This document shows, in pieces, positions 3,985 to 60,759 of a stretch of 63,261 bases of DNA. Below the pieces are notes generated by a model. It ran no database searches. It saw only the letters and a program-made list of their open reading frames with translations, and was not told the DNA's origin. Location of the stretch: positions 1 through 63,261 of the forward strand of contig JAJPIR010000363.1 in NCBI GenBank assembly GCA_021324675.1. The letters run 5' to 3'. Made by a program: the position numbers and the translations under genes. The stretch is from Actinomycetota bacterium (GTDB taxonomy: Bacteria > Actinomycetota > Actinomycetes > Mycobacteriales > Pseudonocardiaceae). The number at the start of each line of letters is the position of its first letter. The first letter of the stretch is position 1.

Positions 3985-4305
3985 GGGCCGACGCTAAGAG
4001 GATCCCGCTCCCGGCTCGACCGCCGTCATCGGCAGCTGTGGACAGCGAGGGTAGGTGGGATAAGTCGCCGGTAGTCACGCATTGCCCGCGGTCGTCGTCA
4101 GGGCGTCATGCGACACTGGACGGTTTGCCGTGGCGATCAGTCAAGCTGGTGGCCTTCTGATTTCACGCCAAGATATTTCTCTAACGAACGGCAGTTCTCC
4201 TTCCGGCTGTAAACCCACCGGCTCGCTGGCATAGGCGTGCGCAGCGAGAACTTGCCGTGTCGGGATGAGCGAGAAATCGACAGCATGAGGTCACTCGGAG
4301 CGTCA
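3985..4305. other. Intergenic stretch between degV and comEA
   Basis: About 320 bases with no credible gene on either strand. It must hold the comEA promoter and the end of the degV transcript. I see no clear hairpin or consensus promoter. Confidence 0.5.
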
Positions 4306-34298: not shown

Positions 34299-35005
34299 GA
34301 TATACCCCAGCCCTAGTGGTACCCACCGATTATCACGGTAGGTTACCTCTATCAATACCATGAACGCCCGTTTGCGATAACACCAGACACCGCCCACCAC
34401 ACGGCCGCATCACCGGGACCGGCGAATGGCGGAGTCGCTATGCATTGCAGGCACGGTCGGTAACGAGCCGCTGGGCGTTTCGGGTGAGGTGTTGTTAGGC
34501 CGACTGGGTCTGCTTTCCCAACGTTACACGAAGGGCTTAGACGCTCTGTATCTCGCCGATGAACCTAGCGTGTTTTAAGCATGAGCCACGCCCCAAGAAC
34601 GTCATATCAGAATCACCGTTACCGCTTGCGACGATCAGGCAAGCCAGTGATATGAACGAGTTGTTGCCGAACGCAGTAACCGTGGGTATCACGCACCTAA
34701 ACCGGCTGCGATCAAAACAAATTCAAGATCGACGATTGAAGTGAGAGAGCGGTGGGTTAGCGATGGGATCCCTCACTCCCGGCAGCGGTGCGCGGACGTC
34801 CGGCCATGTCCACACCTGCACGCGTACGTCTGGAGGCACCGAAGTACGAGCGGTCTACGTACCGTGCTGCCGGCAAGCCGCCAGATCATCGTGGGGAGGG
34901 CAGAAGCCACGGCTTCGGCCCGAACCATGCCGGTCCGGCTTGAACCGGAAAACTTACCCGAACGACCGGTTTGCCGGTTGCGCTTCGTGGTAACCGCGGC
35001 GGCTT
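34299..35005. other. Gene-free stretch upstream of the partner-switching operon
   Basis: About 700 bases with no supportable gene; a 61-codon plus-strand frame at 34559 has no ribosome site. The operon promoter must lie at the right edge, but I see no clear boxes. Confidence 0.45.
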
Positions 35006-36724
35006 ATGCCAGGCGAGTCTGCTGTCCTTAATTCTAAGACCGTGACCTTGGAGACCGGGAGGTCTAGAGGCTCGACTATCTGCGTGTCGTACCCTATGCC
35101 GATCATGTCTACGCCGGATGAGCTGGCCAATATGCCGGGTGCTGACGAACGATTGCGTCGGATCGAGTCGGTGACCGATGCAGCGCTGGCGCACCTCAGC
35201 GTTGATGATCTTTTGGCTGAGTTGCTGGAGCGAGTGCAGGGACTGCTCAAGGTCGACACGGTCGCCGTATTGCTGCTGGATACCTCTTCGGAGCACCTGG
35301 TGGCAACCGCGGCGAAAGGAATCGAGGCAGAGGTCCGCCAAGGGGTTCGGATTCCCTTGGGCAGAGGCTTTGCTGGTCGTGTCGCAGCGGAGAAGAAAGC
35401 GGTGATACTTCCGCAGGTTGATCACACCACGGTCCTCAATCCAATTCTTTGGGAGCATGGGATTCGTTCGCTGCTCGGAGTACCGCTGCTGACCAGCGGG
35501 AGGATCATAGGTGTGCTGCATGTTGGCACACTCGGTACCCGTCGGTTCACCGATGATGACGTTCAGTTGCTCCAGATTGTGGCTGATCGAGTCGCGTCGG
35601 CGATCCAAGTTCGACAGGCTGAAGCCGAGCGAACCGCATCCAGAATGCTGCAACGCAGCTTGCTGCCCGGGCGGCTGCCGGTGGTGGCTGGCCTTGAAAT
35701 GGCCGCTCGCTACGTTCCCGCCGAGCGTGGCGGCGTCGGTGGCGACTGGTATGACGTGTTCGTCCTTCCCTCCGGCGGGCTGTGTGTCGTGATGGGAGAC
35801 GTGGTGGGGCGCGGATTTGTTGCTGCAGAGGAGATGGGTCGGCTGCGCAGCGCGCTACGCGCGCATGTACTTTTCAGCAACGATCCCGCAGAGGCCTTAA
35901 GCAGACTGGACCAGCAAGTGCGGCACTTTGATCGGCCAAGGATGACGGCTACGGTCCAGTTGGCGATTTTTGAGCCATCGTTTGAGCAGTTGCGCCTGTC
36001 CTCGGCCGGCCACCTGCCGCCAGTGCTTGCCCTTCCTGAGAGGCCTGCGGACATCATTGATGTGCCGGGTGATCCTCCGATCGGTGTTTCCGCTGCACTA
36101 CGACGCAGATCAACGACGATCAACGTGCCGGCAGGTGCATTGTTGTGCTTCTACACTGATGGATTGATTGAGCGGCGCGATACCTCGCTGGATATCGGCC
36201 TCAAGCGCTTGTGTGATACGGTTGTGGCTGGACCAGTAGAGTTGGTCAGTGCAAGCATCATGGGCAAACTTATTGGCGACGATCCACCCGCTGATGACAT
36301 TGCGATGCTGGTGTTGCGCCGTCAACGCATCACTGAGATTGGACCATTGCAATTAGCGTTGCCAGCGCAGCCACGGTCACTGAAGGGTATTCGTGATGCC
36401 ATCCGCTGCTGGCTGTCCGCAGTCGGCGCAGGACCCCGCGCGACCGCCGATTTGCTTATTGCTGTCGGTGAGGCGTGCACGAATGTGGTGCAACACGCCT
36501 ACGGACCTGAGGTTGGCATTGTAACGGTGCATGTGGAGCTTCAGTTGCCAGACGTAGTCGCCACTATCGGGGATGCCGGTCGGTGGCGACTGCCGCGCGG
36601 CGACAATCGAGGACGGGGAATGCTGGTTATGCGTTATTGCTCAGATGACGTACGTATTGATTATGGCCCTGCCGGCACCACGGTGGTCATTCGTCGTCGC
36701 CTGGCGGAGGAGGCAACTCGATGA
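35006..36724 (+). CDS. GAF-PP2C (SpoIIE/RsbU) phosphatase fused to RsbW-like kinase
   Basis: The 572-residue protein has a GAF sensor domain (about 55-195), a PP2C-type SpoIIE phosphatase (about 225-430; GGVGGDWYDVF, GDVVGRG, STDG-like CFYTDGLIER, DDPPADDIAML) and a C-terminal HATPase/anti-sigma kinase (about 450-572; GEACTNVVQHAY, GDAGRWRLPRGD, NRGRGMLVMRY). Such proteins dephosphorylate STAS antagonists and can also act as anti-sigma kinases. The start is uncertain; ATG 35105 is an alternative. Its stop overlaps the next start (ATGA), so the three genes are one unit. No sigma factor is adjacent. Confidence 0.9.
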   Translation: MPGESAVLNSKTVTLETGRSRGSTICVSYPMPIMSTPDELANMPGADERLRRIESVTDAALAHLSVDDLLAELLERVQGLLKVDTVAVLLLDTSSEHLVATAAKGIEAEVRQGVRIPLGRGFAGRVAAEKKAVILPQVDHTTVLNPILWEHGIRSLLGVPLLTSGRIIGVLHVGTLGTRRFTDDDVQLLQIVADRVASAIQVRQAEAERTASRMLQRSLLPGRLPVVAGLEMAARYVPAERGGVGGDWYDVFVLPSGGLCVVMGDVVGRGFVAAEEMGRLRSALRAHVLFSNDPAEALSRLDQQVRHFDRPRMTATVQLAIFEPSFEQLRLSSAGHLPPVLALPERPADIIDVPGDPPIGVSAALRRRSTTINVPAGALLCFYTDGLIERRDTSLDIGLKRLCDTVVAGPVELVSASIMGKLIGDDPPADDIAMLVLRRQRITEIGPLQLALPAQPRSLKGIRDAIRCWLSAVGAGPRATADLLIAVGEACTNVVQHAYGPEVGIVTVHVELQLPDVVATIGDAGRWRLPRGDNRGRGMLVMRYCSDDVRIDYGPAGTTVVIRRRLAEEATR

Positions 36725-37446
36725 GCGTGACGATGGCAGACGCCAGCGCCGAAAACGGACCAGTTCGCCTCAGCCTTAGTGGTGATATCGACCGGGCAAA
36801 TGTTGCCGCCATCGAAGAAGAGATTCGCGCGGCGGTTTCCGGTCAGCCCACCGGAGTTTCGGTGGATCTTACCAATGTCACCTATATCGACAGTGCCGGA
36901 AAAAGATTACTCTTCGACTTGGCGTCCGCCCTGCAGGAATCGCACGTTACACTCGAAGTAATTGTGCCCTTTGATTCACCCACGCGCAGGTTGATTGAGC
37001 TGTCAGGACTCCAGTCGCTTGCTGCATTACTGCTTATGCGCCGACAGGACAGCAGTGAGGCCAGCCCGCTGGAGTTGGTGGTGCCTGCGCAGCCGTGGTC
37101 ACTAAAGAATATTCGTGATGCCATGCGGCGCTGGTTGTCAGCAGTCAGCGCGGAGCCGCGCGCCGTCGCTGATCTGCTGATTGCTGTAGGCGAGGCCTGC
37201 ACCAACGTCGTGGACCATGCTTACGGAACTGATGGTGGGATTGTGACGGTACATCTAGAGCTACAGCTTTCGGATGTGGTCGCTACCATCGCGGACACCG
37301 GTCAATGGGGGTTACCGCCCGGCAGGAATCGAGGACGGGGAACGATGTTCATGCGAAACTGCTCCGATGATCTGCGGATCGATCACGGTCCTGCCGGCAC
37401 GACGGTGGTCATCCGTCGCCACCTGATCGAGGAGACAAGCCGATGA
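36721..37446 (+). CDS. STAS antagonist fused to RsbW-like anti-sigma kinase
   Basis: The 241-residue protein has an N-terminal STAS domain (about 1-105) with the phosphorylatable Ser in YIDSAGKRLLF and a C-terminal HATPase kinase (about 118-241; GEACTNVVDHAY, ADTGQWGLPPGRN, NRGRGTMFMRN). Normally these two are separate, opposing proteins. The kinase half is very like the kinase half of the gene before it, and the STAS half like the gene after it, so a tandem duplication created the fusion. ATGA overlaps on both sides imply translational coupling. Cis or trans phosphorylation of its own STAS serine is an open question. Confidence 0.9.
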   Translation: MSVTMADASAENGPVRLSLSGDIDRANVAAIEEEIRAAVSGQPTGVSVDLTNVTYIDSAGKRLLFDLASALQESHVTLEVIVPFDSPTRRLIELSGLQSLAALLLMRRQDSSEASPLELVVPAQPWSLKNIRDAMRRWLSAVSAEPRAVADLLIAVGEACTNVVDHAYGTDGGIVTVHLELQLSDVVATIADTGQWGLPPGRNRGRGTMFMRNCSDDLRIDHGPAGTTVVIRRHLIEETSR

Positions 37447-37769
37447 CCGTCGCAACGGTGGATGCCAGCACTGACAATGGGTCGGTTCACATCAGCCTTA
37501 GCGGTGAAATCGATCTAGCGAACGCCTCAACCGTCGACGAGCAAATCCACGCGGCGGTTTCCGGTCAGCCTACGGCGGTGTCGGTGGACCTCACCAACCT
37601 CACCTACATGGATAGCGTTGGAATAAAATTGCTTTTCGATTTGGTCTCCCTTTTACAGGAGTCAGACATTCCACTTGAGATCATCGCACCTTTTGGGGCG
37701 CCGACCCGCCGCTTAATTGAGTTTTCAGGACTGGACTCGCTCGTCACCCTTAACCCCGCATGCAACTAG
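37443..37769 (+). CDS. STAS-domain anti-sigma factor antagonist
   Basis: The 108-residue single STAS domain has the conserved serine in YMDSVGIKLLFDL. It is closely similar to the STAS half of the preceding fusion (SVDLTN, TRRLIE, FSGLDSL against LSGLQSL). When unphosphorylated such proteins bind the kinase and free its sigma factor. It ends the operon, with its ATG overlapping the previous stop. Confidence 0.92.
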   Translation: MTVATVDASTDNGSVHISLSGEIDLANASTVDEQIHAAVSGQPTAVSVDLTNLTYMDSVGIKLLFDLVSLLQESDIPLEIIAPFGAPTRRLIEFSGLDSLVTLNPACN

Positions 37770-37852
37770 CTTTTTAAGTACCGTTTCCATGGCGCGAGCC
37801 AACAGCGACACCACATACTTTTCACAACGGCCACGCGGTGGTCTGAACGGTC

Positions 37853-38230
37853 TTAGGTCGACAGGTCAAGGCGTGCTCCGGTCTGAGTGATCCAGTCATG
37901 CAGGGTAAGGACGAGTTCGGCGTTGCGCCGTTGCGTGGCAAGACTGACCGCGCCAATCAGGCTATCCAGCAGGGCGTATACCCGGTGGGCGTCAAGGAGC
38001 TCCAGCACTGGGGAAGTGCCGTCAGCGACGAGCTTGTCCAGCTGCTCGTGCAGCGCCTGCCCGTAGGCGGGGTCCTGGATGGAGGGGTACGGGCTTTTCC
38101 TCCGCCCGACGATCGAGGCCGGCAGCAGGTCGCTCACGGCGGCGCGCAGGAGGCTTTTTCGCGACGATCGAAAGTCTTGAATGACCAGGGAGTATTGAAT
38201 ACGTACTGCACCAGCCGATGATCCCGGGCT
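37853..38230 (-). pseudogene. Remnant of an asparagine synthase C-terminus
   Basis: On the minus strand DHRLVQYVFNTPWSFKTFD is followed, after a one-base frameshift in the CTTTTTC run near 38155, by LLPASIVGRRKSPYPSIQDP, both typical of AsnB-type glutamine-hydrolysing asparagine synthases. About 125 residues of the C-terminus survive. The glutaminase domain and most of the synthetase domain are missing, and similarity stops abruptly near 38230. It is a decayed gene, perhaps from a natural-product cluster. Confidence 0.75.
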
Positions 38231-38388
38231 GGACGGGCTTGAACGGCATGGAGATTGTCACTCCCTGATCCCCCTTGGCCAGGGACGGCGCGGGACTGGG
38301 CGGTACGCGACTACCGCACCCCGTGCTCGCTGTCGCCAAACGGATCCCAACAACATCAACAACTGACCACTAGATCAGCGGTAGTTTT

Positions 38389-39054
38389 TCAATCGCCTAC
38401 TCCTCCGCGCTGATGCCGTTTAGGATACCAGACACCATTTATAATATTCGGCCCTTGGAAACCACCGCCCCAATTGTTGATGGGCCGGGGGCACACGCCC
38501 ATCTTGGACGAGTTGTCCATGGTTCCCCATATAAGGTTCAGATCTATCGCTGGCGCGAAAATTAGGCCCCCGCACGATGTTAGTGTCAGGGTCCAGCACT
38601 GACTGAGGGGGGTTAGCGTACCGTTTTCTTTATATTGATAATCACCGGAAAGCTGATCCAGACAGCCAACATGAATCCCATTTCCAGTTGGATTACTCAC
38701 GTGGTAGCTGATGCGCCTGCGCTTGCTAGTGTCAGGGCCGTCAACTTCCTCGCTGGCGGCAGATTCGATATAGTAAGTCATTTTTTTCAGGTAGTCGATA
38801 AAAATCGCGGGTGTAAGATACCACAGATGGCCCTTTTTCTCTATTGTATCCTTGCCAAGGTCTTTGGTGGCCCGCGCTTCCCCTCCGTGGTTATTGTGGT
38901 TTAGATTGTCCGGTTTAAGGTATCCACCATTGACGGCGTGAACAAGCATCACTTCGAGTTTGCCACTGATAGCATCAATAACATTGAAGTCACCGATCGA
39001 GATCACCGTCACTGAACTACAAGTTGTCAAGGTTTCGACGCCGAGTGTTGTCAT
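38389..39054 (-). CDS. Hypothetical protein in AT-richer DNA
   Basis: The 221-residue protein matches no family I know. It has no signal peptide or membrane helix, is rich in Gly, Asn and Thr, and contains scattered Cys (SSVTV-, LDQLSG-, SQCWTLTLTSCGG, GVCPRP). AAGGTG lies before the ATG. Its base composition is clearly more AT-rich than its neighbours, so it was probably acquired recently. The late region WGTMDNSSK...INNWGGGFQGP looks like a compact beta-rich fold, which is inference only. Confidence 0.5.
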   Translation of the reverse strand: MTTLGVETLTTCSSVTVISIGDFNVIDAISGKLEVMLVHAVNGGYLKPDNLNHNNHGGEARATKDLGKDTIEKKGHLWYLTPAIFIDYLKKMTYYIESAASEEVDGPDTSKRRRISYHVSNPTGNGIHVGCLDQLSGDYQYKENGTLTPLSQCWTLTLTSCGGLIFAPAIDLNLIWGTMDNSSKMGVCPRPINNWGGGFQGPNIINGVWYPKRHQRGGVGD

Positions 39055-40091: not shown

Positions 40092-43000
40092 TTAGCTCCC
40101 TCGTTCTACACTTTCGACTAGCTTATCTACCCCGTAAGCGCCAAAGAGGAGTAGCCCGTCAATAAGATCAAGCACCGCCGCCCGGTCGGGCTTGGTTCGC
40201 GCCTGCGCATATGCTCGAAGCACAAGTCTTGCTACCTCGTCCGCATTTCCCGCCGCACTGGTTGACAAGTTTCCCATGTCAACCCCAAAAACATCTATGA
40301 AACGTTCAGCGCAAGCTATAACGAGACCGTCGATCCGATCAGTTGCCTGTTCAAGCGTTATCAATAATTGGTCGATCGCCACCGTAAATGACGGTGAACC
40401 GATCAGCGAGCCCAAGACGCCGTTAAATGACCTAAGTTTTTTACCACGGAGCGCGCCTGCCACCTCTGCCGCGTTCTTGCGGACCTCTTCACTTGGGTCT
40501 TCGACTAGCTGTTGTAACGTGGTACCGGCTAACGTGTTATTGCTGGTATGCGGTAGTCGATGCGCGCAAACGAACGCCACGCCTGCTCTTGTGGCATCGT
40601 CCTCAGTCGTGCGCGCCGCTTCAAAGAGGTCAATGAAGCCCCACTCAAGACCGGCAAAAGCGGCGAGTTCGCCGCCCGCCTTGCGGACTTCTACGAAATT
40701 CGAGGCTAACATCCGCCTAATAACCGGCTCAACGATCGCGGGATCAGTATGTCCAATATAGAGGACTAAGTCAGTGACGTGAGTGGTTGCCAGTAGACGG
40801 TCATCAGCTTGCACCAGGGAGCTAAACGCTCCGATGGCCGATGCAGGCGCATGTCTGAGGCACGCTGCAACCAAGTGCGCTACACACGAACGCACCGGAA
40901 CTGACGAGTCACGCGCGAATGAATCAAGCCACGGTACTACTCGACTAGTTCTATGACCGTCGATATCATGCACTAGCACGTCGCCAAGAAACTGAGCGCA
41001 CGCACCGCGCCCGGAATTGATACCGCAAGATACAATCCTTTCAACGACATTTCGACTGTATACATTACTCTGCTGCCAGTCATCCTCTACTGGCGATGTG
41101 CTATGCAGCGCTCTGTCAATAAGCAGGTCAATGATATCGTCAGGTATGCTAGATTCTAGATCGTTGCGCAACGGCCAAGCAAGCCATTGATCATTCTCGC
41201 CGTGACCAAGTGACCCAATATGACGGATAGCGTCAAATTTTGCATCCGGTAAACCAGAACCTTCAGCATTTCCCAGACCCATCAAGATTGCCCTTGCGTA
41301 CGCTGGATTATGGTCGGGAGTTAGCCGCATTGCAAAGCGAGCGAAGCGATCTGGGTCTGCGACAGTGGCGCTCTGAAGCACGCTCGATAGCTGATGAGCA
41401 CCTCCTCGCATCGTCGTCCAATTGCTTCGATCAGTGTCATACTTAACTATTGCTTGTAGCCAATTATCGTCTGTCATCTTTTGTGCCGACTCGGGTGAAA
41501 TTGGCGGCCCCATAGCACCGCCTCGAAGGGTTGGCCGAACTGGTGGTCGCTCAGCGTTGAACGCCCTTCGTAGCTCACTGAGGCGGCGTTGGGCCAACTC
41601 CGACAGGCGCGACTCTGGTAGGGCAGCGAGCAGAGTGAACATACACCGCCCCTTTGGCGGCGATTCCCAAGGGACCCGAAGCGCCAGGATTGCTCCCTCC
41701 AACCGGGCGAATGTTTCCGACCTTAGATGGGGGCCGATGGTTGCAAGCAGCTTTCCAGTAGCCTCTAGGTTATCAACTAGACGATAATCACCTTCAAGTA
41801 ACAATTCTGCGGCCCATTGAGCATAGTGGTGACCAGCCTCGGACAAGCCCTCGTAAAGTAGCCATTGAGCCGTCTGATGGTGATCCACAGCTAAAGAGTC
41901 CAAAAACGGCTTTGCTGCGTTATGATCTTCGACTACTCCTTTACGTAGTGCATTCTTGGCACCGCTCAGCAGCCCATCCCCAAGGTCTCCCAAGGTATTT
42001 TGACCGTTTACACTCACGTGATAAGCAAACTGGCGATCTGGAAGCGGACATCGTTCCCCTTCATATTCGGTAAGCTGCATCACTCTCTGCAAGTAAGGTA
42101 ACAGCAAGTTGCAGAACACTTGCGGCGCTTTCTCGGCCGCTTTCGTGGCCAACTGAACAGCCGCATGTTCGGTCGATTGAAGAAGCGTTACTTGCCCTGC
42201 GCTGTCAAGGTTAAAAGCGCCAGGTTGGTCCTGGAGATACGCTGACAGTAAATCAATCGCCCAGATTGGCTCATAGTCAGCCAGGTTGTACGCTGACATC
42301 CATAAGTTGTGCTCATGTCCGGCATACTCCCCTCGGCGCATGGCATCAATCACCAAGTTCACCAAAGAACGGCTCGTGTGGAGATCAGCAAGCTGGACAA
42401 CCCACCGCAACCAGATTGGATAATTGGAAGATCTACTTGCATGAGGGCTGATAAGTTCTACTATCCGGTCGGTCCGCTCTTTAATACTGCCGATGATCAC
42501 CTCCATCGCACGATTCTGCCTAGCTTCGTTAACGTTGAGCCAGTGCGCGATTTTCCCTTCCGCGTCAAGACGATCAAACCATGGCACCGTTCTTAATATC
42601 AACCATAACCGTTCGACAAAGTCAGGCTCCGTCTCGATGACCCGCTCCACCATTGCCCATTCTGCATCAGTCGGCGCATTTAGCGCCCGCAGGACAGCCA
42701 AAACCACATCTTTGATATGGAACCGGATTTCAGTATTAAGCAGAAGTTCCTCCGCCTCCTGGATAAACCTCTCCGGCTCGTCGTCATGTAGGTGGCTTAG
42801 CACTTGCCGAACCTGGCCCCTGCGAAAAAGCTCCTGCTCGCCCCCTAATAAAAACTCAACCAATGTTTGCCGTTGGTTGACCCACCCCCGAGCGAAGGCG
42901 TAGTCGAAGAACTCTTCATGGAAAAAAGTGTACTTGCGCTCATAGCACACAAGAACGTGCTCCGACGCCAATATTCGGGCGTCATTTGCTAAATCGTCTT

Positions 43001-44543
43001 GATCGAGGACCGTTATAGGCGCGTAGAGCTGTTGTCGTTCGCTCATGGCGTTGACAATTACCTTGATCACTTCATTGAATCTTGGGACCGGTGATCGGCC
43101 TCGGCAGCAGTCCCGTAATTTGCGGTCCCAGTAGGCATCCAACAAATCCCTTGACGTCCTGAAGGTCAGCGCATTGCCCTGGTCAGCGATACTTCGCAGG
43201 AGGACGAGATTAAACGGTGACCGCAACAAGTTCCGCTGTCCTCTAGTTAATTCAGTGGCATCTAGGCCCATTGCCTGCACCGCCGCGTCAACCTGCTCAT
43301 CTGATAATGGCCCGACTTCAACCTGCGACACGCCATCCGTCTTCGCCAACGCGCGGATACGTTCGTCGTTATCCAAATCGAACTTGCGGCAGGCTAGGAG
43401 CACCCGAATATCAGGAAAGCCAGACGCTTCACGCAGCAAGTTAGCAACCACATCAAAGGATGTCGGCATTCGTCCAGACGCTAAGCTGACCGCGTCCAAC
43501 TGATCAATCACCAGTAAGCAGGGCGTGTCTAGGCTGACTCCAGCAAGAGCGGAGACCGGTGAGATACTTAGGTCCAGTTGTTTGCCGAGCCCAACTGGCG
43601 ATGTGAATGGCTCAAGACGATCCAAGCGCAAGGCAAGAACAGACCAACCTGCCGACTCGGCTTGCTGTACGGTCGCATGTAAAACCGCGCTTTTGCCGCC
43701 GCCAGCCGCACCAATTACAAATAATGTCCGGCTGTCGCCACGAAGCCGATCCCATACATCCGTCGTTTCATGTCGCGTAATAACGGGCTGTAGGAGCAGA
43801 TATTCTACGCTCTGCTTCCACCGCTCAGACACCGCTCGAACGTCCTCGACAAGTGTGGGGCTGCCAATGATTTTCTTGCGTCGCAGACCGTAGTTGCTCA
43901 AAAGCCTTTCAATAGTTCCAGCATCAAGCAGCACATTGAGGTTGTCATCAATCAATTCCCCCAAACTAGCGACTGCTGATTGTGGCGATGCACCGTCGAT
44001 AAGGAGGCCCGCGAATGCGTTATTTACGTTCCGGATGTCCCGTTCGTCGGGCCACTGAACATGCATGTACTGCAGGGTCTTCCAGGCGCTCTCGGCAGAA
44101 CCGAAGACGGTATCTTTGCTCAAGTATTCAAACTCGGACAGCAACTCCTTATTAGTGAGCATGTGATTAAGAAGAATTTGCACACTAGAGGATCGGCGCG
44201 CCCTGTCGCTAAGTTCATTTAGCTTCGGTGCGGGAGTAATCGAAATGAAATAAAATTCGCGTCCTTCTGCTGCGTGCTTGTGTGCTGCGCGAAGAAGACC
44301 TGCCCTCTCAAGGGCCCGCAGCGACCACTCGCTAGCATTTCCGAGTTGACGTTTAACTTGGTGAACTTGGACGATATTGTTTCGCCGAAGCGTGAACTCA
44401 ACTCCCTCACCAATCGGGCCTGCCTCTTCAACCGTTACCGAGTAGGCCCAGCCCAACAACACATACAGAAGCTGTCTGACCGTCCATCTACCTTCGTAGC
44501 GATTACCGAACTTGTCAGCCTCACCACCCGGACGCGGGCTCAC
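40092..44543 (-). CDS. Giant STAND-type NTPase with N-terminal PD-(D/E)xK nuclease-like domain
   Basis: The 1,483-residue protein has an N-terminal nuclease-like domain (about 8-105; EGVEFTLRR then VHQVKRQ, an E...QxK core like Cap4/DUF4297 nucleases). A P-loop NTPase follows with Walker A GAAGGGKS at 278-285 and Walker B LLVIDQLD at 343-350. The C-terminal region from about 560 to 1,480 is a long helical, HEAT-like repeat array. This nuclease-NTPase-sensor order is that of anti-phage STAND (Avs-like) proteins, where the C-terminus senses a phage protein and the nuclease degrades DNA. That function is inferred. It is divergent from an Mrr-type nuclease gene and sits next to attL. Confidence 0.8.
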   Translation of the reverse strand: MSPRPGGEADKFGNRYEGRWTVRQLLYVLLGWAYSVTVEEAGPIGEGVEFTLRRNNIVQVHQVKRQLGNASEWSLRALERAGLLRAAHKHAAEGREFYFISITPAPKLNELSDRARRSSSVQILLNHMLTNKELLSEFEYLSKDTVFGSAESAWKTLQYMHVQWPDERDIRNVNNAFAGLLIDGASPQSAVASLGELIDDNLNVLLDAGTIERLLSNYGLRRKKIIGSPTLVEDVRAVSERWKQSVEYLLLQPVITRHETTDVWDRLRGDSRTLFVIGAAGGGKSAVLHATVQQAESAGWSVLALRLDRLEPFTSPVGLGKQLDLSISPVSALAGVSLDTPCLLVIDQLDAVSLASGRMPTSFDVVANLLREASGFPDIRVLLACRKFDLDNDERIRALAKTDGVSQVEVGPLSDEQVDAAVQAMGLDATELTRGQRNLLRSPFNLVLLRSIADQGNALTFRTSRDLLDAYWDRKLRDCCRGRSPVPRFNEVIKVIVNAMSERQQLYAPITVLDQDDLANDARILASEHVLVCYERKYTFFHEEFFDYAFARGWVNQRQTLVEFLLGGEQELFRRGQVRQVLSHLHDDEPERFIQEAEELLLNTEIRFHIKDVVLAVLRALNAPTDAEWAMVERVIETEPDFVERLWLILRTVPWFDRLDAEGKIAHWLNVNEARQNRAMEVIIGSIKERTDRIVELISPHASRSSNYPIWLRWVVQLADLHTSRSLVNLVIDAMRRGEYAGHEHNLWMSAYNLADYEPIWAIDLLSAYLQDQPGAFNLDSAGQVTLLQSTEHAAVQLATKAAEKAPQVFCNLLLPYLQRVMQLTEYEGERCPLPDRQFAYHVSVNGQNTLGDLGDGLLSGAKNALRKGVVEDHNAAKPFLDSLAVDHHQTAQWLLYEGLSEAGHHYAQWAAELLLEGDYRLVDNLEATGKLLATIGPHLRSETFARLEGAILALRVPWESPPKGRCMFTLLAALPESRLSELAQRRLSELRRAFNAERPPVRPTLRGGAMGPPISPESAQKMTDDNWLQAIVKYDTDRSNWTTMRGGAHQLSSVLQSATVADPDRFARFAMRLTPDHNPAYARAILMGLGNAEGSGLPDAKFDAIRHIGSLGHGENDQWLAWPLRNDLESSIPDDIIDLLIDRALHSTSPVEDDWQQSNVYSRNVVERIVSCGINSGRGACAQFLGDVLVHDIDGHRTSRVVPWLDSFARDSSVPVRSCVAHLVAACLRHAPASAIGAFSSLVQADDRLLATTHVTDLVLYIGHTDPAIVEPVIRRMLASNFVEVRKAGGELAAFAGLEWGFIDLFEAARTTEDDATRAGVAFVCAHRLPHTSNNTLAGTTLQQLVEDPSEEVRKNAAEVAGALRGKKLRSFNGVLGSLIGSPSFTVAIDQLLITLEQATDRIDGLVIACAERFIDVFGVDMGNLSTSAAGNADEVARLVLRAYAQARTKPDRAAVLDLIDGLLLFGAYGVDKLVESVERGS

Positions 44544-44596
44544 GCAAACCTCACTCGGTCAGCACCAATTTTTTACCAGCCTCTACCATGCATATG

Positions 44597-44605
44597 ATTA
44601 TATCA
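44597..44605 (-). promoter_or_regulatory. Extended -10 promoter of the STAND gene
   Basis: On the minus strand TGATATAAT is a perfect extended -10, about 47 bases of leader before the ATG at 44543. No good -35 is seen, which extended -10 promoters can tolerate. Confidence 0.6.
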
Positions 44606-44654
44606 GTTGCCTGTGACTAGATCCGATCGCAAGTCCTGGAATTAACCGATCACT

Positions 44655-44742
44655 TTGACGGTTGTCAACTCACTGCATGTGATCTGCCAGCGGCGGTTCC
44701 ATAGATGCCAGCCGGTTGGAATGCACGTCAACCATTGTTGAC
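44655..44742. promoter_or_regulatory. Two TTGAC/GTCAA inverted repeats in the divergent promoter region
   Basis: TTGAC-GGTT-GTCAA (44655-44668) and GTCAAC-CATT-GTTGAC (44727-44742) are perfect inverted repeats built from the same half-site in opposite orders, each with a 4-base spacer. They lie between the STAND and Mrr-type genes and could be operators controlling both. Confidence 0.45.
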
Positions 44743-44891
44743 TGAAACCTAGACATTGACATAAACAAGCTAAGAGGTGTCGCCAAGCTTCCGCTTGTCG
44801 TCGTGACCCTAAGACATGTCTGACCTTGGCGATCCTTCGATGATCGCGTACGCTCGTGTCCAAACCTGCCTGCAACCTCGGGAGATGTGCG

Positions 44892-46367
44892 GTGCCAACG
44901 GCGTGGGAACGAGAGCAAGAGCGTGAGCGCAAGGCGCGCTACCTGGCAGAGCGCGAGGCCGAGACCAATCGGCGTAACGAGTTAATTAGTCGGAGGCTCG
45001 CCGAACTCGATAACATTCTAGCTACGGGAGTATCCCGAGCCATTGCTCTAGATTTCAATGCCCGAAAGCTGCCTCCGCCGAAGTTCGATGCGGGAGAACT
45101 TGATATTCCTCACCCGGAGCCAAACTTAGAAGAATTCCTCCCTTTTGAACCTGGCGCGCTTGCGCGGATGGTCCCGGGGTGGCGAGGTCGCTACGAGGCA
45201 CAACGAGCACGAGCAGAGGAGCAGTTTAGCGCCGCACACGCAGAGTGGCGGCATCTTGAAAAAGAGCGCGAAGGGCAGAAACGGCAGCTTGCGGACCGTG
45301 ATGAAAGGCATCAACAGGCCATCAGGGAAGTACAAAAACAACATCTCCGCATGGATGAGCTTGCAGCAGACGCGCGGACGGGCAAGCAGTACGCGGTAGA
45401 AGACTACGTTCGCCACGTGCTAGCGACAAGCACCTATCCCCGAGGCTTTTCGGTCAAGTTTAAGCTGAGGTACCTTCCGAGCCGCAAAGACCTGCTCATG
45501 GAGTGTGAATTTCCAGTAGCGCGCGACATTATCCCCGCCGAAGTCTCCTGGAAGTACGTCAAGACTCGGGACGCCATCGATCCAAAGTTGATAACCACGG
45601 CCGAGACAAACCGGATTTATAAATCGGTGCTTGCTCAGGTGACGCTGCGGACGCTCTACGAAATATTCACCGTTGATGCTTTCAGGCATATTGAAACAAT
45701 TTTCTTCAACGGCTTCGTGAATGATGATGATCCCACGACGGGGCGGCCGATCCAGCCTCGACTAGTCTCCCTCCGGGCTGATCGCGACGAGTTCCTTGAT
45801 CGGGACTTCTCGCGGCTAAATCCGGTCAAGGCCTTGCAAAGCCTTCGAGCGAACTTCTCGCCTGCTCCAACTGAGTTAGTGCCCATACCGGCGGTCGTGG
45901 AGTTCGATGTCAATGATCCCCGGTTCATCGAAGAGCAAGACATTATCTCTGCTCTTAACGAAGACACCAACCTTGTTGACTTAACCCCAGATGCTTTTGA
46001 ACAGCTGATTACCAATTTATTCAATGCGATGGGTTTCGAGGCGTATCCCACGCAGCGATCCAAGGATGGTGGCGTTGACTGCATTGCCTACTACAAGAAA
46101 CATGTCGTCGGCGGAAAATATGTGATTCAGGCAAAGCGCTGGACGAATACGGTGCAGGTCGATGCCGTCCGAGACCTATTCGGTGCGATGGATCACGAAC
46201 GCGCGAATAAGGGCATTCTTATCACAACCTCAAAGTTCGCTCCAGCCTGCCACAAGTTTGCTGATGACAAGCCGCTCCAACTCATCGATGGCAGCAACCT
46301 GCTTGCCTTGATTCAAGAATACACGAGTCTGAAAGTGAAGATCGTGATACCGCCACGTAAGTCTTAA
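44892..46367 (+). CDS. Coiled-coil protein with C-terminal Mrr-type restriction endonuclease domain
   Basis: The 491-residue protein begins with a strongly charged coiled coil (about 5-35) and has a second Gln/Glu/Arg-rich coiled coil (about 110-165). An unrecognised middle part (about 180-340) precedes an Mrr_cat domain (about 362-470) with LTPDAFEQLITNLFNAMGF, DGGVDCIAYY and VIQAKRW, the D...QxK core. Mrr enzymes cut modified DNA; here a DNA-targeting defence role with the divergent STAND gene is likely but unproven. GTG 44892 follows GGGAG; a GTG 36 bases upstream is also possible. Confidence 0.85.
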   Translation: MPTAWEREQERERKARYLAEREAETNRRNELISRRLAELDNILATGVSRAIALDFNARKLPPPKFDAGELDIPHPEPNLEEFLPFEPGALARMVPGWRGRYEAQRARAEEQFSAAHAEWRHLEKEREGQKRQLADRDERHQQAIREVQKQHLRMDELAADARTGKQYAVEDYVRHVLATSTYPRGFSVKFKLRYLPSRKDLLMECEFPVARDIIPAEVSWKYVKTRDAIDPKLITTAETNRIYKSVLAQVTLRTLYEIFTVDAFRHIETIFFNGFVNDDDPTTGRPIQPRLVSLRADRDEFLDRDFSRLNPVKALQSLRANFSPAPTELVPIPAVVEFDVNDPRFIEEQDIISALNEDTNLVDLTPDAFEQLITNLFNAMGFEAYPTQRSKDGGVDCIAYYKKHVVGGKYVIQAKRWTNTVQVDAVRDLFGAMDHERANKGILITTSKFAPACHKFADDKPLQLIDGSNLLALIQEYTSLKVKIVIPPRKS

Positions 46368-56327: not shown

Positions 56328-56516
56328 ATGCCAAGGAGGAAGCATCGGCTTATTGTAATTGGAAAAGTGCGCGAGTTCGATGAGGAGGCCTGGAAGCGCC
56401 TACTCATGGCGTACGCCTACTACTTGCACGAACAACGCATGCAGCAAGAGGAGGCTGCGGATTCCACCAACCCGGAGGACCCCGGCGCTGAGGTCTCCAC
56501 AGGAGAAGCCTTATGA
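56328..56516 (+). CDS. Small protein at the head of the VirD4-like operon
   Basis: The 62-residue protein has a basic start (MPRRKHRLIVIGKV), an amphipathic helix with a Tyr-rich face (RLLMAYAYYLHEQRM) and an acidic tail. GGAGG lies 7 bases before the ATG, and its stop overlaps the next ATG. It may be an accessory of the ATPase. No family was recognised. Confidence 0.65.
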   Translation: MPRRKHRLIVIGKVREFDEEAWKRLLMAYAYYLHEQRMQQEEAADSTNPEDPGAEVSTGEAL

Positions 56517-58780
56517 CGGCCGCCGTCATTGCCCTAGTAATCGGGCTGATCGGCATTGCGGTGCTCTGGGTTCTCCGCTGGCGCGACAGTGAGGCCTGGC
56601 GGCTATCGCTGGTGCGCTACCGGTTGACCTTACCCAGCGATTTGTCCGTCGCGGACATTGCGGGCTGGTTTAACCAGCTTGCCACCATCACCCGACCGCC
56701 CCGGTTTTCGTTGCTTCCGGCTCTGCCTGTCGGAGTCGAAATCGAGGCCACGGCCGAGGGCATCACCCATACCGTCTTAGTGCCCGCCGAACATGAGACA
56801 GCGGGCTTAGCCTCGTTGCGGTCTGGGCTGTCTCGGGCGCGCGTTACCGCGCTCACCGACTCGGAGCCGCAAATCACCTTTAAGTGGGCCGCTGAGTTGC
56901 GACTGACCAGCTTTTGGCGGCCCTTAGCCGAGGACCGGGCTGAAACCACCGCCCGCGCGTTGCTAGCGACGTTGCAGCCACTCCAAGCCGGAGAGCGGAT
57001 TCGGCTGGTCTACCTGCTAGCGGGGGCTCAGATTCATATCAGCCCGCCGAACACTGTGTCATTCTGGCAGCACCTCACCGGCAACACGATGCCCACGCCG
57101 GACGCAGAGAAAGATTACCAGCGCAAAACCCGCCATCCGTTACTGGTGGCGTCAATCGGAGTGGCCGTGGCCGCACCATCCGGGGATGGTGCACGGCTGC
57201 TGCACCGCATTACGTCCATCCTGCGGGGCATGGATAACTCCGGCGTCGCCGTCGTTCGTCGGTGGCTTCCGAGCCATGTTGCGGCGCGTCGCGTACCCCA
57301 ACGAACTATGCCGGTGGCGGCTTGGCCGCTCGTGCTCAATACCGTTGAGGCCGCCGGACTCGTGGCCCTCTCACCCAGTGGCGTCGTATTGCCGGGTCTG
57401 CCCATCGGCGCGTCCCGCACCATCCCGCCCGCCGTCGATATGCATACCGGTGGCGTCGTCATCGGCGAAAGCACCTATCCGACCGCCGAGCCGCAGCCGT
57501 TATCCCTCCTCCCCGACGACCGGACCCGACACGTTTACATTCTTGGCCCGACCGGGGTTGGAAAAAGTAACCTCATCACCGGGATGGCGCTGCAAGACCT
57601 CAAGCAGGGTGCGGGGATGCTCGTAGTCGATCCCAAAGCCGATTTGATCGAAGCCTTGATTGCCCGTCTGCCAGAACATCGCCGGACTGGTGTGGTCATT
57701 CTGGACCCCGCCAACTTGGCCAATCCTGCCGGTATCAATCCCTTGCGGGTGCGCGGTGGCGAGCAGCAGCGGGAACTAGCCGCCGAGACCACCGTCAATA
57801 TTTTACGAAACATTTTCCGCGCCTATTGGGGGCACAGAACGGATGATGTGGTGCGAGCCGCGGTGAACAGTTTAGTCCAAGTACCCGCACCAGACGGCAC
57901 CGCCTTCACCTTATGCGAGGTCGCCGAGCTGTTGACGTCCTCACGATTGCGGCATTACGTCGCCGGTCACCCGCGTCTGGATGAACGCTGGCGGGAGTAT
58001 TGGCAATGGTATAACAGCATGAGCGAAGGCGAGCGTTTGCAAACCATCGGCCCAGCCCTCAACAAATTGCGCGCCCTAACCACCCGTATCAGCTTAAAAC
58101 TTATGCTGGGTCAATCGCAGGGACTCGACCTGAACACTATATTTACTCAGCACAAAGTCGTCTTGGTGCCGCTCCGAAAAGGCGTCATCGGTACCGAGGC
58201 GGCCACCTTGCTGGGTGCATTCGTAGTCGGGGCGTTCTGGGCTGCCACCCTGGCCCAGGCAAACATTCCAGCTCATCGGCGGCGGTTTGTCCCCGTATAT
58301 CTCGATGAGTTCCAAAATGTCGTCCGCTTTACCGATGATGTGGCCGAGATGCTAGCCGAAGCCCGCGGGCTCAAGGTTGCACTCCACTTGGCCCACCAAT
58401 ATCAAAAGCAACTTCCTGAAGTAACCCGCGCCGCCGTTATGGGGACGGTGCGCACGCAAATCTTCTTTCAACTCGAACACGACGACGCGAGACCCACCGA
58501 GCGGCGCATTGCCCCGGTACTCACCTCCGCCGACCTCACCAACCTGCCCCAGTACGAGATCGTGGCCCGACTGTGTATCGCGGGACAGACCCGGTCGCCC
58601 GTCACCGGCCGCACCTTGCCGCTGCCCGAACCCAGCCAGGACCCTGAAGCGCTGTGGACCGAACTGGCGGGGGCCTCGGGCATGGCCCGCGCCGACATCG
58701 AGGCCGGACTGCGAGCCCGGCGACTAGCCACCAGTCAAGTCCGGCTTGGTGAACTACCGGTTGATGAGGCCCAGCAGTGA
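56513..58780 (+). CDS. VirD4/TraG-like conjugative ATPase
   Basis: The 755-residue protein has one N-terminal membrane helix (about 3-20), a region of about 320 residues with no clear motif, and a HerA/FtsK-class motor. The motor has Walker A GPTGVGKS (about 344-351), Walker B VPVYLDEFQNV (about 593-603) and HLAHQYQKQLPEVTRAAVMG, the TraG/TraD-type block. Type IV coupling proteins link relaxed DNA to a secretion channel; no channel genes are visible. It is followed by a replication-relaxation gene, a pairing common in actinobacterial elements. Confidence 0.88.
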   Translation: MTAAVIALVIGLIGIAVLWVLRWRDSEAWRLSLVRYRLTLPSDLSVADIAGWFNQLATITRPPRFSLLPALPVGVEIEATAEGITHTVLVPAEHETAGLASLRSGLSRARVTALTDSEPQITFKWAAELRLTSFWRPLAEDRAETTARALLATLQPLQAGERIRLVYLLAGAQIHISPPNTVSFWQHLTGNTMPTPDAEKDYQRKTRHPLLVASIGVAVAAPSGDGARLLHRITSILRGMDNSGVAVVRRWLPSHVAARRVPQRTMPVAAWPLVLNTVEAAGLVALSPSGVVLPGLPIGASRTIPPAVDMHTGGVVIGESTYPTAEPQPLSLLPDDRTRHVYILGPTGVGKSNLITGMALQDLKQGAGMLVVDPKADLIEALIARLPEHRRTGVVILDPANLANPAGINPLRVRGGEQQRELAAETTVNILRNIFRAYWGHRTDDVVRAAVNSLVQVPAPDGTAFTLCEVAELLTSSRLRHYVAGHPRLDERWREYWQWYNSMSEGERLQTIGPALNKLRALTTRISLKLMLGQSQGLDLNTIFTQHKVVLVPLRKGVIGTEAATLLGAFVVGAFWAATLAQANIPAHRRRFVPVYLDEFQNVVRFTDDVAEMLAEARGLKVALHLAHQYQKQLPEVTRAAVMGTVRTQIFFQLEHDDARPTERRIAPVLTSADLTNLPQYEIVARLCIAGQTRSPVTGRTLPLPEPSQDPEALWTELAGASGMARADIEAGLRARRLATSQVRLGELPVDEAQQ

Positions 58781-58895
58781 CAGCGGCCCGTGTTGATGTC
58801 GCTGTTGATATCGCCCGGCTTCTCATAGGCCCTCCTGCCGGGGAAAACGGCCAAATAACGCCGCCGAAATTCCTCACCTCGTTCCGAGGTTCGTC

Positions 58896-59759
58896 ATGAC
58901 GGCCGCCCCACCCGTCCGTGTCCGTTCCCGACACGTCCAGTGGGTCGAAGACCGTCTCAGTGCCCGCGATTGGGCCATCATCGAGACGGTCAACCGGCTG
59001 GGTCTGGTAAGCGGTGTGCAGCTCGAACGGTGCCACTTTGCCGACCTAGCCGAAGGCCGCAGCCGCACGGTGTCACGCTCGCGCACCTTGGCCCGGCTAG
59101 TGGCTTGGCGGGTCCTCCTGCCGCTGCCGCGCCGCGTCGGGGGTCCCCGGCAGGGCTCCAGCGTCACCGTGTTTGCCTTGGACACGGCTGGCGTCCGGCT
59201 CCTGCGCCAGCGCACCGGCATGGACAATGCCGGTCGTATCCGGCGGCCAGGTATTCCGGGTGAGCGGTTTGTTCGCCATGTCCTCGCCGTGGCCGAGCTG
59301 TATACCGGCTTGGTCGAAGCCGCCCGGTCTGGCAATTTCATCTTGCGACAGTTCCAAGCCGAGCCGCGCTGGCCGGATGGTCTGGGCGGCTCAGTCAATC
59401 CGGACGCCTATGTGGTCGTTTCGAACGGACGTGTGGACCATCTGTGGTGGATCGAGGTCGATATGGCAACCGAAAGTTTGCCCACCGTTCGACGCAAACT
59501 GCGCACTTACCTAGATTTCTTGGCGCGGGGTGGACACGGACCGCGCGGCGTCATGCCCCGCGTCCTCGTAGCGGTTCCGGATCAGCACCGGGCTGCGGCT
59601 GTCCGGGCCGAAGTATCACCTTGCCGACGCCCGCCACCGACCTTATGCACGTTATCCGTCAAAGCGAGCTGGCGACGTGGCTGGTGCAAAAACTCCCTCC
59701 ATAGCCGGACTGGACTATTTGGAGGATCTAACGATTCACAAATGAATCAAACGGCGTAA
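58896..59759 (+). CDS. Replication-relaxation family protein with frameshifted C-terminus
   Basis: The 287-residue frame has the PF13814-type order: winged-helix start (RDWAIIETVNRLGLVSGVQL), SRSRTLARLVAWRVLLPLPR, FVRHVLAVAELYTGL, and DHLWWIEVDMATESLPTVRRKL. From about residue 239 it becomes Cys/Arg-rich and unlike the family. In another frame, ITLPTPATDLMHVIRQSELA continues naturally to a stop at 59702-59704. So an indel near 59612-59616 probably changed the last 30 residues. The true end at 59704 also avoids running over the next promoter. It is likely the element's initiator or relaxase. Confidence 0.8.
   Translation: MTAAPPVRVRSRHVQWVEDRLSARDWAIIETVNRLGLVSGVQLERCHFADLAEGRSRTVSRSRTLARLVAWRVLLPLPRRVGGPRQGSSVTVFALDTAGVRLLRQRTGMDNAGRIRRPGIPGERFVRHVLAVAELYTGLVEAARSGNFILRQFQAEPRWPDGLGGSVNPDAYVVVSNGRVDHLWWIEVDMATESLPTVRRKLRTYLDFLARGGHGPRGVMPRVLVAVPDQHRAAAVRAEVSPCRRPPPTLCTLSVKASWRRGWCKNSLHSRTGLFGGSNDSQMNQTA
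59733..59748 (+). promoter_or_regulatory. GATTCA-N4-TGAATC operator before the ImmR-like gene
   Basis: GATTCA-CAAA-TGAATC lies 38 bases before the repressor start and overlaps the likely -35 region (a TAAAGT -10 is at 59757-59762). The same inverted motif sits in the promoter at 56176-56203. Autoregulation by the XRE protein is the simplest reading. Confidence 0.65.
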
Positions 59760-59786
59760 AGTGGGCAGCAAGTAATAGGAGGAGCT

Positions 59787-60167
59787 ATGACACCAACACC
59801 CAAGGCCAAAACTTTAGGCGCGTATCTGCGGGCCGCCCGCCTCAAGGCCGGTCTATCCACCCATCAACTAGCGGCCCGCGCCCATATCAATCAAAGCTAT
59901 CTAGTCAAACTCGAAACCGACCAAAATCACCCCTCGGCCGAGACCGTACAACGCTTAGCCGACGCGCTCAGGCTCGACGAGGCCAAACTACTCCAGTTTA
60001 TCGGCGTAAAGCCCGCCAGCCTTCTGCCCGCCCCACGCGTTTATTTCCGCCGCAAACTTGGCGTGGGCGCCCAAGAAGCCGCTGTGCTCGCCCGTTTGAT
60101 TGAAGATTATAGGCAACAACGAAAGGAGAACCCCGATCATGACGATACCAAAGACCGAGTTCCGTAA
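59787..60167 (+). CDS. XRE-family repressor (ImmR-like)
   Basis: The 126-residue protein has an HTH_3 domain (about 8-65; TLGAYLRAARLKAGLSTHQL, ARAHINQSYLVKLE, PSAETVQRLADALRL) and a short C-terminal linker ending in a polar tail. GGAGGAGC precedes the ATG. It overlaps the metallopeptidase gene by 29 bases. ImmR-type repressors hold integrative elements silent until a partner protease cleaves them; the operator pair nearby fits this. Confidence 0.88.
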   Translation: MTPTPKAKTLGAYLRAARLKAGLSTHQLAARAHINQSYLVKLETDQNHPSAETVQRLADALRLDEAKLLQFIGVKPASLLPAPRVYFRRKLGVGAQEAAVLARLIEDYRQQRKENPDHDDTKDRVP

Positions 60168-60759
60168 CCTGCTGGACCAATTACGCCAGCTCGCACCCAA
60201 GCGCCCGCTCACCTATGGCGAATCACTCCAGGTCGCCAGACTCCAAGCCGACCGGCTCCGGCAATGGGTCCAAACTGACAATCCCGATATTAATCTCATC
60301 TGGCTCACGGGCCAGCGCGTGATCCCGGTGCAGTTTGTTCCCAGCCACAAACTCGACACCGAAAGCGGCCTCACCACCGATCTCGTGAGTGGCCGCCTGG
60401 AAATCTACATTAACGACAATGAGCCGCATCTGCGCCAACGTTTTAGTTTGCTGCACGAGTTCAAACACGCCCTCGACTTCTACGACGCCGATGTTCTCCA
60501 CGCCAAACTTGGACGCGGCAATAGCCAGTTGCAAGGCCGCATGATCGAGTGGACCTGTGATGAGTTCGCTGGTAATGTTCTCATGCCAACCGTACTCGTC
60601 AAACGTTTGTGGTTTAAGGTTCAGGATGTGCCGACCATGGCTAATCTCTTTCATGTCTCAGTTGAAGCCATGGCCACTCGTCTGGAAAAACTCGGCCTTC
60701 TGGGTGAAACCAAACCCAAGTCGCGCCATTATTTCCGTCGCCCTCTTATCACCGCTTAA
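60139..60759 (+). CDS. ImmA/IrrE family metallopeptidase
   Basis: The 206-residue protein has the zinc motif HEFKH at 106-110 (SLLHEFKHALDF) and a third-ligand region WTCDEFAGNVLMP near 137. A C-terminal winged-helix-like part follows (MANLFHVSVEAMATRLEKLG). Relatives cleave XRE repressors after DNA damage or a quorum signal and so induce ICE excision. I start it at ATG 60139, behind AAGGAG, not an upstream ATG inside the repressor. It is the expected antagonist of the overlapping repressor. Confidence 0.9.
   Translation: MTIPKTEFRNLLDQLRQLAPKRPLTYGESLQVARLQADRLRQWVQTDNPDINLIWLTGQRVIPVQFVPSHKLDTESGLTTDLVSGRLEIYINDNEPHLRQRFSLLHEFKHALDFYDADVLHAKLGRGNSQLQGRMIEWTCDEFAGNVLMPTVLVKRLWFKVQDVPTMANLFHVSVEAMATRLEKLGLLGETKPKSRHYFRRPLITA

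What the first reader, a model, noticed from the sequence alone, without database searches (positions are those of the whole stretch)
35006..37769. Partner-switching cassette reshaped by internal tandem duplication
The kinase halves of genes one and two are near copies, and so are the STAS parts of genes two and three. A single duplication of a kinase-STAS unit, with a breakpoint in the phosphatase-kinase linker (RRQ...LPAQPRSLK against RRQ...VPAQPWSLK), explains the odd STAS-kinase fusion and both ATGA overlaps. The result places an antagonist and the kinase that inactivates it in one chain, with a phosphatase, a second kinase and a second antagonist beside it.
Basis: partly seen in the sequence, partly recalled or inferred. 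Interest (0 to 1): 0.8.

Follow-up and report, generated by a model that had tools for sequence, protein, structure and literature searches.

The report
Duplicated kinase-antagonist stress-switch cassette
An actinobacterium carries a signalling gene set in which one old tandem duplication copied a kinase-plus-target gene pair and so fused a target protein to a second kinase; the parts are of known kinds, but the origin of the fusion can be traced.

Summary
Observation confirmed; the duplication reading holds. Three overlapping genes encode GAF-SpoIIE phosphatase-kinase, STAS-kinase and STAS. The segments 36300-37020 and 37022-37742 (approximate) match at one fixed offset, 722 nt, at 71.6% identity, against 25.7% on average at other offsets. 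The undivided form (phosphatase-kinase + STAS, ATGA overlap) is the common one: 8 of 16 genus loci, one in this same genome, and 24 of 24 distinct places examined elsewhere. One other genome found, a Pseudonocardiales MAG, has the three-gene form. A DNA tree makes the two kinase-STAS units sisters (98/96) and rejects separate duplications in the two genomes (p 2.7e-5); the kinase alone supports this less firmly. All four domains show dN/dS 0.16-0.18 between the two genomes. The fused architecture itself is known: SipA of Actinoplanes (STAS + RsbW-like, 243 aa), and CapK/VapK also join STAS to a GHKL kinase. What is added is a visible birth of such a fusion by tandem duplication, and a lysine after the phospho-serine motif of the fused STAS where 34 of 34 other STAS rows are hydrophobic. 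Function is inferred; nothing was assayed.

The parts
35006..36724 (+). Gene 1: GAF sensor - SpoIIE-type phosphatase - RsbW-type kinase (572 aa as listed; probable true start 35132, 530 aa)
   Evidence: Pfam GAF, SpoIIE, HATPase_c_2; open frames of the two nearest relatives start at the residue equivalent to M43
36314..36724 (+). Kinase K1, first copy of the kinase half of the repeat
   Evidence: Offset-722 repeat; 71% aa to K2
36721..37446 (+). Gene 2: STAS-kinase fusion (241 aa)
   Evidence: Pfam STAS and HATPase_c_2 in one frame; same fusion in G004:C52, 74% identical
36721..37020 (+). STAS S2, fused antagonist domain; Ser58 in DSAG kept; lineage-specific Lys61 and Arg25
37023..37446 (+). 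Kinase K2, second copy; N-box and glycine motifs kept
37443..37769 (+). Gene 3: stand-alone STAS S3 (108 aa), DSVG site
   Evidence: 75% to the S3 of G004:C52
36300..37020 (+). Repeat unit 1 (K1 + S2), approximate ends
   Evidence: Identity profile at offset 722
37022..37742 (+). Repeat unit 2 (K2 + S3), approximate ends
   Evidence: Identity profile at offset 722
36721..36724 (+). ATGA overlap of genes 1 and 2
   Evidence: same overlap in 11 of 11 two-gene loci inspected
37443..37446 (+). ATGA overlap of genes 2 and 3

Best explanation
A partner-switching cassette changed by one old tandem duplication. Its ancestor was the two-gene operon still common in the genus: GAF-phosphatase-kinase followed by STAS, with an ATGA overlap. 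A segment of about 722 bp, from the end of the phosphatase domain to near the end of the STAS gene, was duplicated head to tail. Because 722 leaves remainder 2 on division by 3, the first STAS ran on in frame into the second kinase, which made gene 2, and the kinase/STAS overlap was copied to both junctions. Shown here: domains, repeat, relatives, trees, constraint. Inferred: the GAF domain sets the phosphatase; the phosphatase dephosphorylates the serines of the STAS domains; K1 and K2 phosphorylate them; unphosphorylated STAS holds a kinase or anti-sigma partner. For gene 2 the mode I think most likely (about 0.4) is that reported for SipA: K2 is bound in cis by its own STAS and binds a second STAS in trans (gene 3, or a STAS-bearing sigma factor elsewhere), so the fused STAS tunes K2 and is not a free antagonist. 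Whether the two STAS compete is open; for SipA the two-hybrid data suggested it and the predicted structures did not.
For: One fixed 722-nt offset over the whole unit. ATGA kinase/STAS overlap in 11 of 11 two-gene loci inspected. Two-gene form in 8 of 16 genus loci and 24 of 24 distinct places elsewhere in family and order. Same three-gene form in G004:C52, a separate MAG. Unit tree: unit-1 pair and unit-2 pair sisters, 98/96; separate duplications rejected, p-AU 2.7e-5; nearest two-gene relative G009:C125, 100/100. STAS DNA tree 95/93 and kinase DNA tree 96/87 (with C20 inside the clade) agree. dN/dS 0.16-0.18 for K1, K2, S2, S3 between the two genomes. C20 groups with the three-gene cassettes in the GAF-phosphatase and kinase trees, and its STAS remnant is nearest S2. 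Solved relatives: Rv1364c 3ke6, RsbW/RsbV 6m36/6m37, SpoIIAB. SipA: the kinase-like domain binds its own STAS and that of its sigma factor.
Against: dS is near saturation (0.8-2.1 between copies), so the date is uncertain, and partial gene conversion between K1 and K2 in G000 is not excluded (held as a pair: p-AU 0.068). K2 with the two-gene kinases is only marginally rejected (p-AU 0.055), and the kinase protein tree does not resolve it. The three-gene cassettes of G000 and G004 differ more (dS 0.8-1.2) than the two-gene pair C199/C98 of the same two genomes (dS 0.36-0.37), so they are not simple orthologues. No relative of the SigB/F-type sigma lies on the window contig at E 1e-30. The structure model leaves the linker loose (pLDDT under 50 at 107-112, pTM 0.60), so docking in cis is not shown. 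No SipA sequence was obtained, so kinship to it is untested.
Confidence: 0.8

Rival explanations
1. Two whole cassettes once stood in tandem, or a paralogous cassette recombined in, and the second GAF-phosphatase was deleted; the second unit then comes from a sister cassette and not from an internal copy.
For: The genome holds further such cassettes (C199, C20). K2 alone can be placed with the two-gene kinases at p-AU 0.055, and the kinase protein tree does not resolve it.
Against: One offset with no indel over about 720 nt in the window; STAS and joined-unit trees point to one duplication; the open frame from S2 to K2 leaves no room for GAF or phosphatase remains.
Confidence: 0.15
2. The fused STAS of gene 2 has lost the antagonist role and is a regulatory or structural domain of the kinase, as the STAS of CapK/VapK seems to be, with gene 3 as the only real substrate.
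For: Lys61 and Arg25 are fixed in both S2 sequences, against hydrophobic residues in 34 of 34 and Leu in 34 of 34 other rows (only two S2 sequences exist). CapK, which has its own STAS domain, phosphorylates a separate STAS protein, and VapK is modelled to do so.
Against: Ser58 and the DSAG motif are kept and S2 is under the same constraint as S3 (dN/dS 0.16 each).
Confidence: 0.35
3. Assembly artefact or decaying locus.
For: Both assemblies are in many contigs, and six of 16 genus loci are damaged or had no STAS in the stretch read.
Against: Same three-gene form in two separate assemblies at 74-75% identity for K1, gene 2 and S3, all frames open, low dN/dS.
Confidence: 0.02

Closest known systems
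SipA of Actinoplanes missouriensis (AMIS_54230; PMC10733313, passages and part 1 of 2 of the Discussion read)
   Same: STAS then RsbW-like domain, 243 aa against 241 aa; the RsbW-like domain was shown by two-hybrid to bind its own STAS and the STAS of its sigma factor
   Different: Next to a sigma factor with a C-terminal STAS (SsdA); no phosphatase cassette mentioned in what I read; homologues reported only from Micromonosporaceae and one Nonomuraea; sequence kinship to gene 2 not tested
CapK/CapS and VapK/VapS/VapC (PMC13373217, sections 11 and 13 and passages read)
   Same: STAS-GHKL kinase beside a separate STAS protein (phosphorylated by CapK; predicted for VapK)
   Different: CapK has an HTH, CapS a winged helix, VapKSC a PIN toxin; activation by single-stranded DNA (reported for CapK, predicted for VapK); no phosphatase gene mentioned in what I read
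Rv1364c of Mycobacterium tuberculosis (PDB 3ke6; PMC7693655, passages read)
   Same: Sensor, PP2C phosphatase, GHKL kinase and STAS-type antagonist working together; best solved relative of genes 1 and 2 by sequence
   Different: One chain in the order sensor-phosphatase-kinase-antagonist; one kinase and one antagonist
Two-gene GAF-phosphatase-kinase + STAS operon of the same bacterial family
   Same: The ancestor type, with the same ATGA overlap
   Different: No second kinase, no fused STAS

Membership tests
Partner-switching module (RsbU/RsbW/RsbV type) | SpoIIE-family phosphatase domain | tested here: met
   PF07228, 3.7e-39, in gene 1
Partner-switching module (RsbU/RsbW/RsbV type) | RsbW/SpoIIAB-type kinase domain with N-box and glycine motifs | tested here: met
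   PF13581 in genes 1 and 2; motifs kept in both (motif names recalled); the gene 2 model matches RsbW and SpoIIAB
Partner-switching module (RsbU/RsbW/RsbV type) | STAS with serine in DSxG | tested here: met
   DSAG in S2, DSVG in S3
Partner-switching module (RsbU/RsbW/RsbV type) | Kinase phosphorylates and phosphatase dephosphorylates the STAS | not testable with these tools
   Needs purified proteins
Partner-switching module (RsbU/RsbW/RsbV type) | Cognate sigma factor or other output linked | tested here: inconclusive
   No relative of the STAS-sigma protein at E 1e-30 on the window contig or on G004:C52; no sigma domain in the window ORFs scanned; a STAS-sigma gene lies beside the sister cassette C20
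SipA family | STAS + RsbW-like domain in one chain of about 240 aa | tested here: met
   SipA domain limits from the paper
SipA family | Sigma factor with STAS domain next to it or one gene away | tested here: not met
   In G000 and G004 no such sigma at E 1e-30 on the contigs that carry gene 2
SipA family | Sequence kinship to SipA | not tested
   No named Actinoplanes sequence was obtained; since gene 2 groups with K1 and S3 of its own cassette, a separate origin is likely (inference)
CapK/VapK | STAS-GHKL kinase with STAS-wHTH partner, or with STAS + VapC partners | tested here: not met
   Gene 3 has only STAS in 108 aa; the next ORFs downstream (37898-38221, 38389-39054) have no Pfam match
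Rv1364c type | Phosphatase, kinase and STAS in one chain in that order | tested here: not met
   Three genes; STAS precedes the kinase in gene 2

The most novel reading that the evidence does not exclude
SipA-like STAS-kinase fusions can arise repeatedly by tandem duplication of an overlapping kinase-STAS gene pair. Here the new chain is a self-bound kinase whose STAS changed its docking face (Lys61), so that one phosphatase input drives two unequal antagonists, with a STAS-bearing sigma factor of the kind found beside the sister cassette as the output.
Probability: 0.2. Interest if true: 0.6.

Novelty: new variant of a known kind. Interest (0 to 1): 0.4.

Why it matters
Fusions of a partner-switching kinase with a STAS domain are known, but I found no account of how one arose. 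Here the ancestral form (C199), the duplicated form (window) and a probable decayed form (C20) are all in one genome, on different contigs, so the order of events can be read. The locus also gives a natural test of what happens to a partner switch when kinase and antagonist are put in one chain, and points to residue 61 of the STAS as the place to look.

Tried and rejected
Other full-length STAS-kinase fusions: apart from G004:C52, no match across both domains in one frame among 390 family, 397 order, 394 class and 296 phylum genomes (the sets overlap, limits were E 1e-25, 1e-20, 1e-20 and 1e-15, and mostly only the best 7-9 candidates per genome were scored) nor in the printed part of the list for 121 order genomes at E 1e-8 (list cut). 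Kinase matches in open frames of roughly 210-245 aa were followed up in six cases (L008, L144-L147, L160): no STAS fused in any; L145 and L147 have a separate STAS match upstream, L160 is a phosphatase-kinase cut by the contig end and followed by STAS. One place spanning both domains (G420:C20) has a stop between them. Genome-contig scan: 2 loci, G004's and a weak match in a Lachnospiraceae MAG covering residues 9-77 only. Plasmids: 7 records, kinase part only, none covering 80% of the query; phages: none. Six genomes of two unnamed genera of the order, at E 0.1: no match across both domains in one frame. Paper searches for SpoIIAA L61A found nothing, and two papers looked into for residue 61 did not mention it (passages only); its role in docking is recalled. 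Searches listed no paper that I recognised as describing such a duplication origin. A sigma-70-type promoter scan of 34500-38400 found none. The first mixed alignment (A2) misplaced STAS tails and was replaced by A3, with stand-alone STAS rows cut to 77 residues, before the structure job. No SipA sequence could be compared.

Full report
What is there. Gene 1 has GAF, SpoIIE phosphatase and HATPase_c_2 kinase domains, gene 2 STAS and HATPase_c_2, gene 3 STAS. Gene 1 as listed has 572 aa, but the open frames of its nearest relatives start at the equivalent of M43, so 35132 is the likely start.

The repeat. At offset 722 the window matches itself at 71.6% over 723 nt; among other offsets of 700 to 3000 nt either way the best gives 31.5% and the mean is 25.7%, SD 1.8%. 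Identity starts in the end of the phosphatase domain (about 36300, opposite 37022) and ends near the STAS end (about 37020, opposite 37742). The starts of genes 2 and 3 are also 722 apart, and 722 leaves remainder 2 on division by 3, which is what puts the first STAS and the second kinase in one frame. In G004:C52 the offset is 719 in the kinase half and 722 in the STAS half, in line with a one-residue gap in its K1; its first overlap is TGATG, its second ATGA.

Relatives. In the genus (11 genomes with this one, 8 with a match at E 1e-15) I count 16 loci with a close kinase. Two have the three-gene form (window, G004:C52). Eight have kinase + overlapping STAS (C199, C98, C230, C203, C7, C394, C125, C303), one of them (G010:C203) with a shortened phosphatase match. 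Six are damaged or showed no intact STAS in the stretch read: C20, C323, C15, C353, C4, C293. In the family 76 of 390 genomes match at E 1e-25, and only G000 and G004 over nearly all of gene 2. Of 29 further loci 24 are distinct places (23 in the family, one in the order), and all 24 are phosphatase-kinase followed by STAS in another frame. The kinase/STAS overlap is ATGA in 11 of 11 two-gene loci inspected. G004:C52 equals contig JAFAWY010000145.1, titled Pseudonocardiales bacterium MAG (same length and coordinates).

Trees. DNA: K2 pair 99/96; both K1 with C20 92/86; these five together 96/87. S2 pair 99/97, S3 pair 89/84, together 95/93. Units joined: unit 1 pair 100/98, unit 2 pair 99/97, together 98/96, with G009:C125 as nearest two-gene relative (100/100); separate duplications in the two genomes rejected, p-AU 2.7e-5. 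Against or short of this: the kinase protein tree does not resolve K1, K2 and the two-gene kinases, and in the STAS protein tree G009:C125 falls inside the S3 group at 81/85. K2 with the two-gene kinases has p-AU 0.055, and the two G000 kinases as a pair 0.068. Holding K1 and K2 together without C20 is rejected (p-AU 0.016), because C20 falls inside the duplicated clade.

Later history. In the GAF-phosphatase tree C20 is sister to G004:C52 (98/98) with the window cassette outside (100/100 for the three). The STAS remnant of C20 matches S2 best (bit scores 81.5 and 80.6, against 64.4 and 62.6 for S3), changes frame after about 25 codons, and its homology ends near codon 38. So C20 is most likely a decayed three-gene copy, and the duplication is older than the split of these cassette lines; a two-gene copy with an S2-like STAS is not excluded. 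Between G000 and G004, dN/dS is 0.18, 0.17, 0.16 and 0.16 for K1, K2, S2 and S3 with dS 0.8-1.2; the two-gene pair C199/C98 of the same genomes has dS 0.36-0.37. Surroundings differ: clpX, clpP and trigger-factor-like genes (named by eye) and a Usp gene in the window; an ABC transporter pair and an IS21-type element at G004:C52.

Function. Relatives with solved structures are Rv1364c, RsbW, RsfB and SpoIIAB; the fold search adds RsbV/RsbW and SpoIIAA/SpoIIAB. The model of gene 2 has mean pLDDT 78.1, pTM 0.60 and a loose linker. N-box and glycine motifs of both kinases and the DSxG serines are kept (meanings recalled). Fixed in both S2 and absent from S3 and all other rows: Ala6 (31 rows), Arg25 (Leu in 34 of 34), Lys61 (Leu, Val, Ile or Met in 34 of 34; Ile and Leu in S3) and Gln98 (32 rows). 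K2 has Asp at fragment position 61 where 38 of 38 others have Glu. Only two S2 and two K2 sequences exist, so these are leads. STAS position 61 follows the phospho-serine motif and by recall faces the kinase.

Known counterparts. SipA of Actinoplanes missouriensis has the same two domains in 243 aa. Its RsbW-like domain binds its own STAS and the STAS of sigma SsdA in two-hybrid tests; the authors' predicted structures put the two STAS on opposite faces, and they doubt that they compete. They found homologues only in Micromonosporaceae and one Nonomuraea (PMC10733313). CapK and VapK join STAS to a GHKL kinase beside a STAS protein (PMC13373217). Rv1364c carries sensor, phosphatase, kinase and antagonist in one chain (PMC7693655). 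The fusion as such is therefore not new; its origin by duplication is what this locus adds.

Possible output. Beside C20, divergent from it, lies a 461-aa gene with STAS followed by sigma-70 regions 2, 3 and 4, the reverse order of SsdA. Close relatives covering the STAS part too are at G000:C143 and G004:C33; none lies on the window contig or on G004:C52 at E 1e-30. This suggests, but does not show, that such cassettes act on STAS-bearing sigma factors.

Verdict. The history is well supported, the general function is a fair inference, the mode of gene 2 is open. New variant of a known kind; interest 0.4.

Noticed in passing
L083:6284-7669 (G000:C20): STAS-sigma-70 fusion of 461 aa, divergent from the decayed sister cassette; relatives at G000:C143:49167-50402 and G004:C33:5957-7168.
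   Followed up: partly
L083, about 4250-4363 (G000:C20): Truncated, frame-broken STAS remnant after a full phosphatase-kinase gene: a probable decayed copy of the three-gene cassette.
   Followed up: yes
40092-46367: Large nSTAND-type NTPase gene and a type IV restriction enzyme-like (Mrr) gene side by side, with lower GC (about 0.52-0.55) than the left half of the window: a likely defence island.
   Followed up: partly
56513-60759: TraG/HerA-like, replication-relaxation and M78 peptidase genes: possibly part of an integrative element.
   Followed up: no
L074, L075, L079, L081: Several broken or incomplete cassettes of the same family in related genomes, which hints at quick turnover.
   Followed up: partly
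L080:1152-2081 (G009:C125): MEDS-domain gene just upstream of the nearest unduplicated relative of the cassette.
   Followed up: no
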